Assembly: GCF_018304825.1 (NCBI RefSeq)
Contig: NZ_CP072648.1
Span: forward strand, 541,501 to 605,500
DNA from: Chloracidobacterium validum
Lineage (GTDB): Bacteria; Acidobacteriota; Blastocatellia; Chloracidobacteriales; Chloracidobacteriaceae
Reading direction: 5' to 3'
Length of the DNA: 64,000 nucleotides
Numbering within the stretch: position 1 is the first letter of the stretch; each line of letters opens with the position of its first letter. Below are positions 51,148-54,766 of the stretch, piece after piece. A program made the translations under genes and the position numbers. The notes beneath the pieces were generated by a model, which saw only the letters and a program-made list of their open reading frames with translations, did not search any database and had not been told where the DNA came from.

Positions 51148-52074
51148 ATGTCAGTGACACTGGGTGAACTCGTCAAGGAAGGCGCTCAACGCCTGGCCGC
51201 CGGTCAGGTTCCAGACCCCTACCGAACGGCGGTCCACTTGGTCCGGGAAACTTTGGAGGTTGACGCTGCCAAGCTCATTGCCCATCCCGAACACCAAGTG
51301 GATGAGGACGTGGTCGCCTTGGTTCGGCAAGCGTTCGCGCGTCGCGCCGGCGGTGAGCCGTTACAATACATCACGGGGCGACAGTCGTTCTACGGACGCA
51401 CGTTTCAGGTTACGTCGGATGTGCTCATCCCACGCCCAGAAACCGAGCTACTGGTGGAGGCGGTGCTTGACTACACTCGTGGCCAGGTGCGAACCGACTG
51501 GCGCGTCCTCGATGTAGGAACTGGGTCCGGCTGTTTGGCGGTGACACTGGCGGCTGAACTGCCCGGCGCTCAGGTGTGGGCCGTGGATATTTCACCGGCC
51601 GCGCTGGCTGTCGCCACCGCCAACGCGCAATGCCAGGGGGTTGCCGAGCGCGTTGCATTCGTCGAAAGCGACTGGCTATCGGCATTGCCGACAGACACGC
51701 CGCCATTCGACATCATCGTATCGAACCCGCCATACATCGCCGAACATGAGTTCACCGGGCTACAACGCGAGGTGCGCGATCACGAGCCATACGTCGCCCT
51801 CATTGCCGGACCGTCCGGGACTGAGGCTTACGAGCGACTCCTATCCGAGCTGCCACCATGGCTTGCGCCAGGCGGTATCCTGGCGTGCGAAGTTGGTTTT
51901 GGTCAGGCCACACAGGTCGGCGCGCTCGCCGAAATCCACGGCTGGCAGGTGCAGCGCGTCATGAACGATCTCCAAGGTATTCCACGTGCGTTGCTGTTTA
52001 CGCCGTTACCGATGTGGTGGACAATCAACGAGCGCGTCAACTACCCACCTGGGTCGTCAAGCGACACATACTGA
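51148..52074 (+). CDS. prmC: Peptide chain release factor N5-glutamine methyltransferase
   Basis: A 308-residue SAM-dependent enzyme that methylates the GGQ glutamine of release factors. The N-terminal helical domain carries PLQYITGRQSFYG and VLIPRPETELLVE. The methyltransferase core has LDVGTGSGCLAVTLA and the hallmark NPPY at 193-196. The C-terminus extends about 20 residues past the usual end. The start follows gaggtgca. prfA, its common neighbour, is not present here; two coiled-coil genes follow instead. Confidence 0.92.
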   Translation: MSVTLGELVKEGAQRLAAGQVPDPYRTAVHLVRETLEVDAAKLIAHPEHQVDEDVVALVRQAFARRAGGEPLQYITGRQSFYGRTFQVTSDVLIPRPETELLVEAVLDYTRGQVRTDWRVLDVGTGSGCLAVTLAAELPGAQVWAVDISPAALAVATANAQCQGVAERVAFVESDWLSALPTDTPPFDIIVSNPPYIAEHEFTGLQREVRDHEPYVALIAGPSGTEAYERLLSELPPWLAPGGILACEVGFGQATQVGALAEIHGWQVQRVMNDLQGIPRALLFTPLPMWWTINERVNYPPGSSSDTY

Positions 52075-52091
52075 CCGTGCGGGGTTGTTAT

Positions 52092-52655
52092 ATGGAAACA
52101 AAGCCAACGCTTGAAACCATCCTTGACCGTCTGAACGCCATCGAAGCGCAAGTCATCACTCGCATGGACAATGTTTCAGATCACCTTACCCAACTGACGA
52201 AGCAGGTTCAGGGCTTGGAAGCACAGGTCATGCAGCTTGCGGGGCGGATTGACCGACTCGAAACGCAGTCCACGCAGCTTGTGGGACGGATTGACGGATT
52301 GGAAGCACAGGTCACGCAGCTTGCGGGGCGGATTGACCGACTCGAAACGCAGTCCACGCAGCTTGTGGGACGCATTGACGGATTGGAAGCACAGGTCACA
52401 CAGCTTGTGGGGCGGATTGAGAGCCTAGAAACACAGGTCGCGCAATTTGCGGGGCGTATGGATGGTCTCGATGCGCGCGTCGGTCGCTTGGAAGAGCAAG
52501 TTATCGCCGGGTTTGATGTTGTTCGGAGCGAACTGAAGCTCATGAACCGCAAGCTCACCGTGTTGGCCAAAACAAGTCTCGACCATGAGGCACGGCTTGA
52601 CCAGCTTGAAGATCTCACGGAAGCCGCCCTATCGGCCTCAAATGGGAAGGGCTAG
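52092..52655 (+). CDS. Coiled-coil protein, heptad-repeat twin
   Basis: This 187-residue protein begins METKPTLETILDRLNAIEAQ. It continues as a coiled coil of 14-residue (two-heptad) units such as LAGRIDRLETQSTQ and LVGRIDGLEAQVTQ. The C-terminus has GFDVVRSELKLMNRKLTVLAKTS. The next gene has the same N- and C-terminal frame but an 11-residue repeat. I know no function; the family may be a scaffold or cytoskeletal-like protein. The ATG is only 17 bases after prmC, and the ribosome-binding site (ggggttgtt) is weak. Confidence 0.7.
   Translation: METKPTLETILDRLNAIEAQVITRMDNVSDHLTQLTKQVQGLEAQVMQLAGRIDRLETQSTQLVGRIDGLEAQVTQLAGRIDRLETQSTQLVGRIDGLEAQVTQLVGRIESLETQVAQFAGRMDGLDARVGRLEEQVIAGFDVVRSELKLMNRKLTVLAKTSLDHEARLDQLEDLTEAALSASNGKG
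52233..52400 (+). repeat. 84-bp tandem repeat inside the heptad coiled-coil gene
   Basis: Two near-identical 84-base units (52233-52316 and 52317-52400) encode two 14-residue units each. Further diverged 42-base units lie on both sides. Repeat number could change in frame by slippage or recombination. Confidence 0.9.
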
Positions 52656-52751
52656 ACTTTGGCGCTGTTTCCAGTTGTCTGTGCCACCGGTCAACGTCCT
52701 TCCACACTTTCTGATGCTGAAACTGGACTCAAAACGAAGAAAGGATTCCGT

Positions 52752-53171
52752 ATGGAAACGAAGCCAACCCTTGAGACCATCCTTGAACGAATGAACGCCA
52801 TGGAGTCACGTCTGATGACCCGGATTGATGATGTAGAGAACCGGTTATCTGCCCGGATTGATGACGTAGAGAGCCGGTTATCTGCCCGGATTGATGATGT
52901 AGAGAACCGGTTATCTGCTCGGATTGATGATGTAGAGAACCGGTTATCTGCCCGGATTGATGACGTGGAGAACCGGTTGACCACACGCATCGAGACGCTT
53001 GAGACACAGGTCAGGGAAGGCTTCCAGCAGGTGCAGGCTGAACTCAAGCTCATGAACCGAAAACTCGAGGTGATGACGCAGGACATCATGGACATGCGCG
53101 CCCGTGTGCGCGATGTCGAGCACCGGATGGATGAGGTCGAAAACGAAGTCCGGGCGAAAATTGCCAGTTGA
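52752..53171 (+). CDS. Coiled-coil protein, hendecad-repeat twin
   Basis: This 139-residue protein starts METKPTLETILERMNAMESR, closely matching its upstream sister. The middle consists of five exact or nearly exact 11-residue units (LSARIDDVENR), a hendecad pattern that favours right-handed or straight coiled coils. It ends with GFQQVQAELKLMNRKLEVMTQDIMDMRARVRDVEHRMDEVENEVR. The ATG at 52752 follows aagga. It is likely oligomeric and cytoplasmic; function unknown. Confidence 0.7.
   Translation: METKPTLETILERMNAMESRLMTRIDDVENRLSARIDDVESRLSARIDDVENRLSARIDDVENRLSARIDDVENRLTTRIETLETQVREGFQQVQAELKLMNRKLEVMTQDIMDMRARVRDVEHRMDEVENEVRAKIAS
52841..52972 (+). repeat. 33-bp tandem repeat, four units
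   Basis: Units of 33 bases starting with ccggttatctgc run from 52841 to 52972 with only a few substitutions; partial units flank them. They encode the 11-residue hendecads and keep the reading frame. Confidence 0.9.
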
Positions 53172-53194
53172 CCCGGCAAGTGACCGCAGTTCCT

Positions 53195-54766
53195 TCACCG
53201 TGTCACCTGGACTACCCGCACCTTGGGATAGTCGCTTGGAAAGTCAACGACCTGTCTGACTTGGAAACCTGGCAGGGCCGGCGCTTCAAACCGTTCCGAG
53301 CGGTAGTCGAGGATGACCCAGGCCCGCCGAACCTCACGCTCGAGGGATAAACGGTCAACTTGGCTGTGTCCGTTTGGTTCTCCGGTTGGCACCGGCTGAG
53401 TTGAATAGATCATCGCTCCCAACCCATAGCGTGGCGCATAGTAGGCAAGGCACACATCTACGGCGTCTGGGTCAATCACCACCCGGTCGCCTGGCTCGGC
53501 CTGCTGGCGAATAAAAGCCAACGCCGGACGCACATCGCTGTCACGGGCGGTCGTCGTGTAGTGCAGGCGCGTACCTTGCCAAAACAAACCGGCAACACAG
53601 AACCCAAGCGCCAAGGGTCGTTGCCACCCGCGCACTTGGTCGAGCGCCACAGCGATACAGAACCACACCGCCGGTGTCGTAAAGAGTAGGTAGCGGCCTA
53701 ACTCCATGCCACCTTTCCGCAGCGATAGCCCGCTGGCAATCAACAGCGGGAGCATCAGCAACATGACGGGAAGCGCGGCGCGCACATCCGTTCGTGCCAA
53801 GTGAAGGCAGCGCCCAAGCCCAATCCCGGTCAGGAGAGCAAACCACAAGATCAACAGGACGTTGAAAGCTAAAGGCTGCCAGAAGAAGCTCCCCGGCAGG
53901 GTGATGTGTTCTGTCATGAGCCGGGTGAGCCATTCGCGGGTGTGGTCGAGATAGACGGCGTATCCGAGAACGGTTTCCTGGATATAGCCAAAGGCTTGCC
54001 ATCCGACGTCCCCCAGCGTCAGTGGCTTGCGCCAAGTTTGTCCGCGCCGCATCTGGGCAAGCATGACCGCAACCCACGGCGCGTAAAGAAGTCCCATCGT
54101 CCCGTGTGCGATGAGCCACCGGTAGGTTTGGCGGCGCGTTCCAGCCTGTGTCGGCCCGAATGCGGAAAGCAAAAAGTGCGCGTTGAAGGCCAGGATGGCC
54201 AGCAGGGCGAAGTAGTGACAATACAGTGCTGCCAATGAGCACCACACATAGATTGCCAATCCGCGTTCAATACCGGTTTCACGCCACATGGCGTAGCCGC
54301 GTGCCGCGCCGAGCACAAGCGCCATCACCAGTGCATACATCCGGGCTTCTTGGGCAAAGAAAACTTGGTGGGCAGATGTGGCCATCAGGAGCGTCATGGT
54401 CAGCGCCGCCCATCCGCCGTAACGTGGTGCGACCAAACGAAACGCTGCGATCAGTGCCGCAAGGCTGGCAACGACGGAAAGCGACCGCACGGCAGCGGCA
54501 CTGTCGCCAAAGAGTCGCATCCAGCCCTTCAGCACAAAGTAAAACAGTGGTGGGTGGACATCTGCCGCCGCACACCGGACGATCTCGGCCAGCGGTTTGC
54601 GCGCTACGTCAATGGAATACAGCTCATCCAGCCAGAGGTTTTGCGTCGCGATCCCCCACCACCGCAGCCCAAGCGCCAATGGCAACACGCCAAGCCAAAA
54701 CAGCCGTCCCGTCCCGTCCGAAACCGCATTTTCAGCTCTGACGTGGTTAGCCACACGCGCTGTCAC
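53195..54766 (-). CDS. Membrane glycosyltransferase of the GT39/ArnT type
   Basis: This 523-residue polytopic membrane protein has about eleven hydrophobic segments. The first loop holds NLWLDELYSIDVAR, with the Asp-Glu pair used by lipid-linked glycosyltransferases of this superfamily, and HPPLFYFVLKGW after it. These enzymes transfer a sugar from a polyprenyl-phosphate donor to a protein, lipid or cell-wall acceptor. The start is a GTG only 6 bases after the stop of the radical SAM gene, so the two form an operon. The acceptor is unknown. Confidence 0.8.
   Translation of the reverse strand: MTARVANHVRAENAVSDGTGRLFWLGVLPLALGLRWWGIATQNLWLDELYSIDVARKPLAEIVRCAAADVHPPLFYFVLKGWMRLFGDSAAAVRSLSVVASLAALIAAFRLVAPRYGGWAALTMTLLMATSAHQVFFAQEARMYALVMALVLGAARGYAMWRETGIERGLAIYVWCSLAALYCHYFALLAILAFNAHFLLSAFGPTQAGTRRQTYRWLIAHGTMGLLYAPWVAVMLAQMRRGQTWRKPLTLGDVGWQAFGYIQETVLGYAVYLDHTREWLTRLMTEHITLPGSFFWQPLAFNVLLILWFALLTGIGLGRCLHLARTDVRAALPVMLLMLPLLIASGLSLRKGGMELGRYLLFTTPAVWFCIAVALDQVRGWQRPLALGFCVAGLFWQGTRLHYTTTARDSDVRPALAFIRQQAEPGDRVVIDPDAVDVCLAYYAPRYGLGAMIYSTQPVPTGEPNGHSQVDRLSLEREVRRAWVILDYRSERFEAPALPGFQVRQVVDFPSDYPKVRVVQVTR

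What the first reader, a model, noticed from the sequence alone, without database searches (positions are those of the whole stretch)
52092..53171. Sister coiled-coil genes that switched repeat length (14-residue heptads against 11-residue hendecads)
Adjacent genes share the start METKPTLETIL and the ending ELKLMNRKL, but the middle of one is built from 14-residue (42/84 bp) units and the other from 11-residue (33 bp) units. Heptads and hendecads give different superhelical twist, so the pair may form rods with different geometry. Exact DNA repeats allow in-frame length change, so rod length may vary among strains.
Basis: partly seen in the sequence, partly recalled or inferred. Interest (0 to 1): 0.58.

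Follow-up and report, generated by a model that had tools for sequence, protein, structure and literature searches.

The report
Coiled-coil gene pair with interchangeable rods
Two neighbouring genes of a photosynthetic hot-spring bacterium make rod-shaped proteins with the same starting tip, but their rods grew from different repeated building blocks, and related species carry similar tips on rods of other lengths, a small natural example of how protein rods change length and twist.

Summary
Genes A (52092-52655, 187 aa) and B (52752-53171, 139 aa) share METKPTLETIL and an inner ELKLMNRKL block, which is not the C-terminus (32-34 residues follow). A's middle is heptads (42/84-bp units), B's is hendecads (33-bp units); shuffle tests confirm both registers. 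The genome is Chloracidobacterium validum BV2-C.

The same locus behind prmC in other genomes of the genus shows what happened. End pieces are conserved (dN/dS 0.07-0.18) while the rod between them differs by species: B-type cap-to-block distances are 41 residues plus 0, 14, 55 (5x11) or 67 (4x14+11). The shortest form already holds two hendecad stutters, so B amplified a resident stutter rather than converting heptads. Between two close species, three tandem genes each differ by exactly one 42-bp unit. The TKPT[IL]ET[VI]LER start recurs in 10 of 162 class genomes, some without rods.

I read the family as cytosolic coiled-coil spacers. Partner, function, oligomeric state and within-species variation are untested. 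Length-variable coiled coils are known, so this is a variant of a known kind.

The parts
51148..52074 (+). prmC-like gene (protein N5-glutamine methyltransferase, named from recall), the constant upstream neighbour
   Evidence: ORF; found in 6 of 6 other genomes of the genus
52092..52655 (+). gene A, 187-aa coiled-coil protein, heptad rod
   Evidence: ORF; single helix 7-184 predicted, pLDDT 93.2
52092..52133 (+). A: N-terminal cap METKPTLETILDRL
   Evidence: shared with B and with the family
52212..52463 (+). A: array of 14-residue (42/84-bp) heptad units, residues 41-124
   Evidence: TRF; 3.5 residues/turn
52509..52556 (+). A: inner conserved block GF..V..ELKLMNRKL, residues 140-155
   Evidence: aligned to B
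52557..52655 (+). A: A-type tail with stop
   Evidence: conserved in G006 A and in a rod-less protein of viral contig L104
52752..53171 (+). gene B, 139-aa coiled-coil protein, hendecad rod then heptads
   Evidence: ORF; single helix 7-138 predicted, pLDDT 96.1
52752..52793 (+). B: N-terminal cap METKPTLETILERM
52821..52985 (+). B: five 11-residue (33-bp) units, residues 24-78
   Evidence: TRF, units laid out, 11/3 periodicity
53019..53066 (+). B: inner conserved block GF..V..ELKLMNRKL, residues 90-105
53067..53171 (+). B: B-type tail with stop
   Evidence: conserved in G001, G005 and G006

Best explanation
A and B belong to an uncharacterised family of small, soluble, wholly alpha-helical coiled-coil proteins. 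Each has a conserved N-terminal cap (METKPT[IL]ET[VI]LER, whose first six residues precede the predicted helix) and one of a few conserved C-terminal pieces; between them sits a replaceable rod. The rod lengthens or shortens by whole tandem units through slippage or unequal recombination between direct repeats, and the units seen are those that keep the frame and a continuous hydrophobic stripe: 7, 14, 28 or 35 residues (heptads) or 11 (a hendecad). In C. validum, B amplified a hendecad already present next to its cap, whereas A and the B-type genes of other species amplified heptads. Shown: homology, registers, conserved ends against unit-wise rod change. Inferred: slippage or recombination as the mechanism, homo-oligomers, cytosolic location, use as spacers or tethers whose ends bind something, and a B rod nearly straight or slightly right-handed against a left-handed A rod.
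For: Registers: shuffles; core spacing; spectrum. Homology of A and B. B-type distances from Met1 to ELKLMN/ELKLIN of 41, 55, 96 and 108 residues in G001, G005, C. validum and G006, that is +0, +14, +5x11, +(4x14+11). Three tandem genes in G001 and G005 all differ by exactly 14 residues although prmC differs by dS only 0.11. Array periods in 11 of 14 genes (3 have none) are multiples of 21 bp except the 33 bp of C. validum B. End pieces under purifying selection: dN/dS 0.176 for A, 0.074-0.181 for 6 of 6 B pairs. Units within 8 of 8 measured arrays differ by dS 0-0.38, less than B end pieces of distant species pairs, 0.79-1.49. Rod-less relatives with the same cap. Continuous helices.
Against: The third locus does not keep the rule across distant pairs: only 1 of 6 cap-distance differences is a multiple of 7 (35; the others are 15, 150, 20, 115, 135, computed). 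The gene is decayed or missing at this locus in 3 of 7 genomes, so an important job is unlikely. No neighbour outside the genus is shared among the 8 relatives looked at, so nothing points to a partner. Oligomerisation, expression and location are untested.
Confidence: 0.62

Rival explanations
1. Neutral turnover: the arrays expand and shrink by replication slippage, purifying selection only removes changes that break frame or coil register, and neither rod length nor period matters to the cell.
For: Rods differ widely while ends stay; units young or homogenised; loss in 3 of 7 genomes; differences present even between close species.
Against: Nothing observed excludes it. That arrays are kept in 11 of 14 genes, with repeated independent expansion, hints at some use for a rod but does not show it.
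Confidence: 0.4
2. B works as a lipid-surface protein like exchangeable apolipoproteins: its 11-residue units form an amphipathic 11/3 helix lying on a membrane or on the chlorosome envelope.
For: All 15 PDB sequence matches of B at E up to 0.01 are apolipoproteins (best E 4.3e-9, A-IV); best Pfam hit PF01442 at E 3.9e-12. The host has chlorosomes (PMC8245765 abstract).
Against: Score 46.7 is far below the PF01442 cut-off of 90. The hydrophobic face of the unit covers only about 65 degrees and is flanked by Glu and Arg; B is acidic, net charge -8. Class A lipid-binding helices have much wider apolar faces (recalled). The rest of B, and A and the other orthologs, are ordinary heptads.
Confidence: 0.06
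3. The unit differences are partly assembly artefacts (collapsed or expanded repeats).
For: If G001 is the 2011 C. thermophilum B assembly (recognised from recall of its contig length), it was made by 454 pyrosequencing (PMC8245765 section 15), and all three tandem genes are one unit shorter there.
Against: The arrays in these three genes are under 250 bp, within a 454 read (recalled). Units carry distinguishing bases. The third locus is longer, not shorter, in G001. The other isolates, C. validum included, were sequenced with PacBio. The difference in unit type between C. validum B and G006 B cannot come from collapse.
Confidence: 0.07

Closest known systems
Chicken BG proteins: cytoplasmic coiled coils built from 21-nt heptad exons of varying number (PMC5938342, passages)
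   Same: Coiled-coil length varies by whole heptad units between genes and haplotypes; fixed end domains
   Different: Eukaryotic, unit is an exon, membrane protein, heptads only
PadC phytochrome-diguanylate cyclase linkers (PMC9587094, passages)
   Same: Bacterial coiled coil between conserved ends whose length differs mostly by multiples of seven, with a minority class at -4
   Different: Short linker between enzyme domains, length tied to signalling, no exact DNA tandem arrays described in the passages seen
Mixed heptad/hendecad coiled coils and stutters (PMC4786415, passages)
   Same: Heptads twist left, hendecads slightly right; a 4-residue stutter makes a hendecad
   Different: General geometry; no gene family with interchangeable arrays
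Exchangeable apolipoproteins A-I, A-IV, E (PF01442)
   Same: 11-residue helical periodicity; best sequence matches of B
   Different: Below the family cut-off; narrow hydrophobic face; pattern convergence in my reading
Reovirus sigma-1 and gp26 tail needle coiled coils (matches of A)
   Same: Heptad coil with similar core pattern (E 4.5e-9 and 2.6e-7)
   Different: Viral structural proteins; similarity is of pattern, not evidence of descent
Repeat-variable helical proteins such as Borrelia Bdr and streptococcal M proteins (recalled; one search listed one paper, not read)
   Same: In-frame tandem repeats in helical proteins that vary in number
   Different: Membrane- or surface-linked in those cases (recalled); A and B show no membrane segment or signal sequence by eye (no predictor run)

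Membership tests
Heptad coiled coil (A) | Hydrophobic core period of 3.5 residues | tested here: met
   Power at 3.5 in residues 13-140 reached by 0 of 5000 shuffles; at 11/3 by 517 of 5000
Hendecad coiled coil (B, residues 21-89) | Hydrophobic core period of 11/3 residues | tested here: met
   Power at 11/3 reached by 0 of 5000 shuffles, at 3.5 by 4018 of 5000; 4-4-3 core steps
Coiled coil (A and B) | Two or more helices packed in an oligomer | not testable with these tools
   Only monomer prediction was available; it gives single helices
Family with TKPT[IL]ET[VI]LER cap (defined here) | N-terminal cap motif | tested here: met
   Both genes and 18 further genome places match, all read as motif at or near the start of a small predicted coil-like ORF
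Apolipoprotein A1/A4/E, PF01442 (B) | Score above the curated cut-off | tested here: not met
   46.7 against 90
BLOC1_2, PF10046 (A) | Score above the cut-off and match over the family's length | tested here: not met
   Score 44.1 passes 33.4, but the best stretch matches only positions 50-94 of 96, and several unrelated coiled-coil families (HSBP1, bZIP_1, SlyX, FlaC_arch) pass too; read as a generic coil cross-match
Trimeric coiled coils (sigma-1, gp26) as relatives of A | Trimeric assembly | not testable with these tools
   Sequence matches only

The most novel reading that the evidence does not exclude
The unit type is a selected geometry switch: by amplifying either a resident stutter (11 residues, near-straight or slightly right-handed) or a heptad pair (14 residues, left-handed), a lineage sets both the distance and the relative rotation of two conserved ends without changing the ends, and C. 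validum keeps one rod of each kind side by side.
Probability: 0.12. Interest if true: 0.66.

Novelty: new variant of a known kind. Interest (0 to 1): 0.4.

Why it matters
Coiled coils are known to mix periods and to vary in length, but orthologs within one genus that carry the same end pieces on rods rebuilt from different near-exact DNA repeats, one of another helical period class, are good natural material for asking how new rod geometry arises. The shortest relatives show the seed (two stutters) from which an array could be copied, so the steps can be rebuilt and measured in vitro. If rod length or twist matters to the cell, the three tandem genes with one-unit differences between two close species give a ready comparison.

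Tried and rejected
Family searches as a route to function: Pfam, NCBIfam and PHROGs return dozens of generic coiled-coil cross-matches; rejected as identification. Neighbour genes as a route to function: the 8 relatives outside the genus that I examined sit next to unrelated-looking genes (read by eye, no family search run on the neighbours); in the genus the constant neighbour is prmC, and I see no link. Genome-contig search with protein B: 1 hit, read as a generic coiled-coil match (L070, residues 9-54), not used. Weak matches in other families of the class were not counted as family members unless they carried the cap. Promoter/terminator scan of 51900-53400 found neither.

Paper searches: none found; Chloracidobacterium with coiled coil: 3 papers, none about these proteins by title and abstract start. 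I found no paper on this family in those eight searches, which cover only openly licensed papers. What I saw: PMC8245765 abstract and sections 15 and 16; PMC12816986 abstract and passages; PMC5938342, PMC9587094 and PMC4786415 passages; all others search listings only.

The first prmC dN/dS run used a wrong frame for G001 and G005 and was replaced. The binomial figure (6 of 8 length differences multiples of 7, 1.8e-4) is not relied on: the eight were hand-picked, partly dependent, and used the array-only value at the third locus.

Full report
What is there. The window is G000:C1:541501-605500. G000 has 3,659,143 bases in 2 contigs, one of 2,659,040 bp and so the other of 1,000,103 bp: exactly the two chromosomes given for Chloracidobacterium validum BV2-C (PMC12816986 abstract), a chlorophototroph of the class Blastocatellia. 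Gene A (52092-52655) starts 17 bp after a prmC-like gene (51148-52074); gene B (52752-53171) starts 96 bp after A; the next large ORF (53195-54766) is on the other strand. No sigma-70-like promoter or terminator was found between 51900 and 53400, so co-transcription with prmC is possible but unproved.

TRF finds 42/84-bp units in A and 33-bp units in B. A and B align over 173 columns at 38% identity, E 1e-27. The shared ELKLMNRKL is internal; the tails after it differ. Register was tested two ways. By hydrophobic power against 5000 composition shuffles: A residues 13-140 at 3.5 residues/turn 0 of 5000, at 11/3 517 of 5000; B residues 21-89 at 11/3 0 of 5000, at 3.5 4018 of 5000; G006 B residues 36-100 at 3.5 0 of 5000, at 11/3 2618 of 5000. 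By a simple dynamic programme for core spacing: A gives 3-4-3-4 through its array, B gives 4-4-3 repeated and then 3-4. AlphaFold2 on a thin 4-sequence alignment predicts one unbroken helix for each, residues 7-138 in B (pLDDT 96.1) and 7-184 in A (93.2), with METKPT before the helix. Both are monomer models (pTM 0.54 and 0.45) and say nothing about packing.

The same locus in the genus. Six other genomes of the genus are held. All six have prmC. G006 has A (121 aa) and B (151 aa). G001 and G005 have three tandem B-type genes: 115, 143, 83 aa and 129, 157, 97 aa. G003 has a decayed A-type remnant. G002 and G004 have nothing recognisable behind prmC. So 4 of 7 genomes carry intact copies. G001 has a contig of 2,683,362 bp, which I recognise from recall as C. 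thermophilum B; G005 is then probably C. aggregatum (inference). For C. thermophilum B and C. aggregatum E an ANI of 93.64% is published (PMC12816986 passage); prmC of G001 and G005 differs by dS 0.11.

Ends conserved, rods replaced. Measured from Met1 to ELKLMN (ELKLIN in G005), B-type genes are 41 (G001), 55 (G005), 96 (C. validum) and 108 residues (G006). With the units read off, the surplus over the shortest is 14, 5x11, and 4x14+11. A differs by 70 residues between C. validum and G006. All three tandem genes differ by exactly 14 residues between G001 and G005. In the shortest form the core spacing after the cap is already 4-4-3-4-4-3, two hendecads; G006 keeps stutters on both sides of its heptad array; C. 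validum B repeats the 4-4-3 pattern throughout. I therefore read the 33-bp array as an amplified resident stutter, not a heptad array that mutated.

Array periods. TRF on 14 genes of the genus finds arrays in 11; 3 have none (G001 gene 3, G005 gene 3, G005 third locus). Ten of the 11 have only periods that are multiples of 21 bp (21, 42, 84, 105, 126, 189); C. validum B alone has 33 bp.

Selection and age. End pieces of A (C. validum-G006) have dN/dS 0.176; end pieces of B have 0.074-0.181 in 6 of 6 pairs; prmC has 0.145-0.213 in 6 of 6 pairs. Units within one array differ by dS 0 to 0.38 in the 8 sets measured, below the 0.79-1.49 between end pieces of B in the distant species pairs. The arrays are thus young or homogenised. 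Site counts are small, so these numbers are rough.

A third locus. Elsewhere in the genome (G000:C1:697827-698111) a 95-aa paralog begins METKPTIETVLERMAEQTA and carries three 7-residue units; its relatives are 126 aa (G006), 241 aa (G001, 28/35-residue units) and 106 aa (G005). G001 and G005 differ there by 133 residues inside the array (19 heptads) plus 2 outside. Against the rule: with cap distances 54, 69, 89 and 204 at this locus, only C. validum-G006 (35) is a multiple of 7 among the six pairs.

The family beyond the genus. A degenerate DNA pattern for TKPTxETxLxR (third-from-last positions limited to I/M/L/F, I/M/V, L/F, D/E and R/S by the codon letters) matches 10 of 162 class genomes, with 0 reversed-pattern control matches. 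In a phylum sample of 396 genomes it matches 5, all in the class, and none of the 349 outside it. It also matches 2 viral contigs. The 20 genome places all read as small ORFs with the motif at or near the start; the viral ones are rod-less proteins of 67 and about 70 aa, one with an A-type tail. Exact matching makes these minimum counts: G006 B, for one, is missed by the pattern. Only this phylum and the viral collection were searched for the motif.

How it probably works. Conserved ends and a disposable rod suggest a spacer or tether: the rod makes an oligomer and sets distance, the ends do the binding. Purifying selection on the ends, together with decay or absence in 3 of 7 genomes, points to an accessory role. 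By the geometry in PMC4786415 (passages), heptads twist left and hendecads slightly right; relative to 3.63 residues/turn I compute -3.7 and +1.0 degrees per residue, so B's hendecad stretch should be nearly straight and A clearly left-handed. Five 11-mers add about 8 nm. Whether cells use that is unknown; neutral turnover under a keep-the-coil filter explains most of the data as well.

A side result. The two sister rods resemble different solved proteins by sequence: B's 15 matches at E up to 0.01 are all apolipoproteins, and A's 4 matches at E up to 1e-5 are two reovirus sigma-1 sequences, the gp26 tail needle and a 'conserved membrane protein'; sigma-1 and gp26 are trimeric coiled coils (recalled). 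I read this as pattern convergence: B is below the apolipoprotein family cut-off (46.7 against 90) and the apolar face of its unit spans about 65 degrees.

Known or new. Length variation of coiled coils by whole heptads is in print (chicken BG; PadC linkers), and so are stutters and mixed periods. What I did not find, in the eight searches listed under Tried and rejected, is this family, or a case where orthologs in one genus amplify units of different period class between conserved ends. I therefore file it as a new variant of a known kind.

Noticed in passing
L071:2130-3327 and L072:2088-3411: Three tandem B-type genes (G001, G005) whose first codons and the residues just upstream of the start are nearly identical among the copies within a species, suggesting recent duplication or gene conversion.
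   Followed up: partly
L085:1495-2220 (G001 third locus): A 241-aa relative built from 105-bp and 84-bp units; its counterpart in close species G005 is 106 aa.
   Followed up: yes
L108 (G005 third locus): The cap reads METKPTIEIVLRTM instead of METKPTIETVLERM, a departure from the otherwise constant motif.
   Followed up: no
L074, behind prmC (G003): Decayed A-type gene: cap without its ATG and a detached MMNRKLTALAE piece.
   Followed up: no
L103:6163-6366: Viral contig with a 67-aa rod-less protein bearing the cap, about 1.2 kb from a 1221-aa ORF on the other strand that looks like a phage tail or fibre protein by eye.
   Followed up: no
L104:302-514: Viral contig with a rod-less capped protein with an A-type tail, next to the end of an integrase-like ORF (read by eye).
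   Followed up: no
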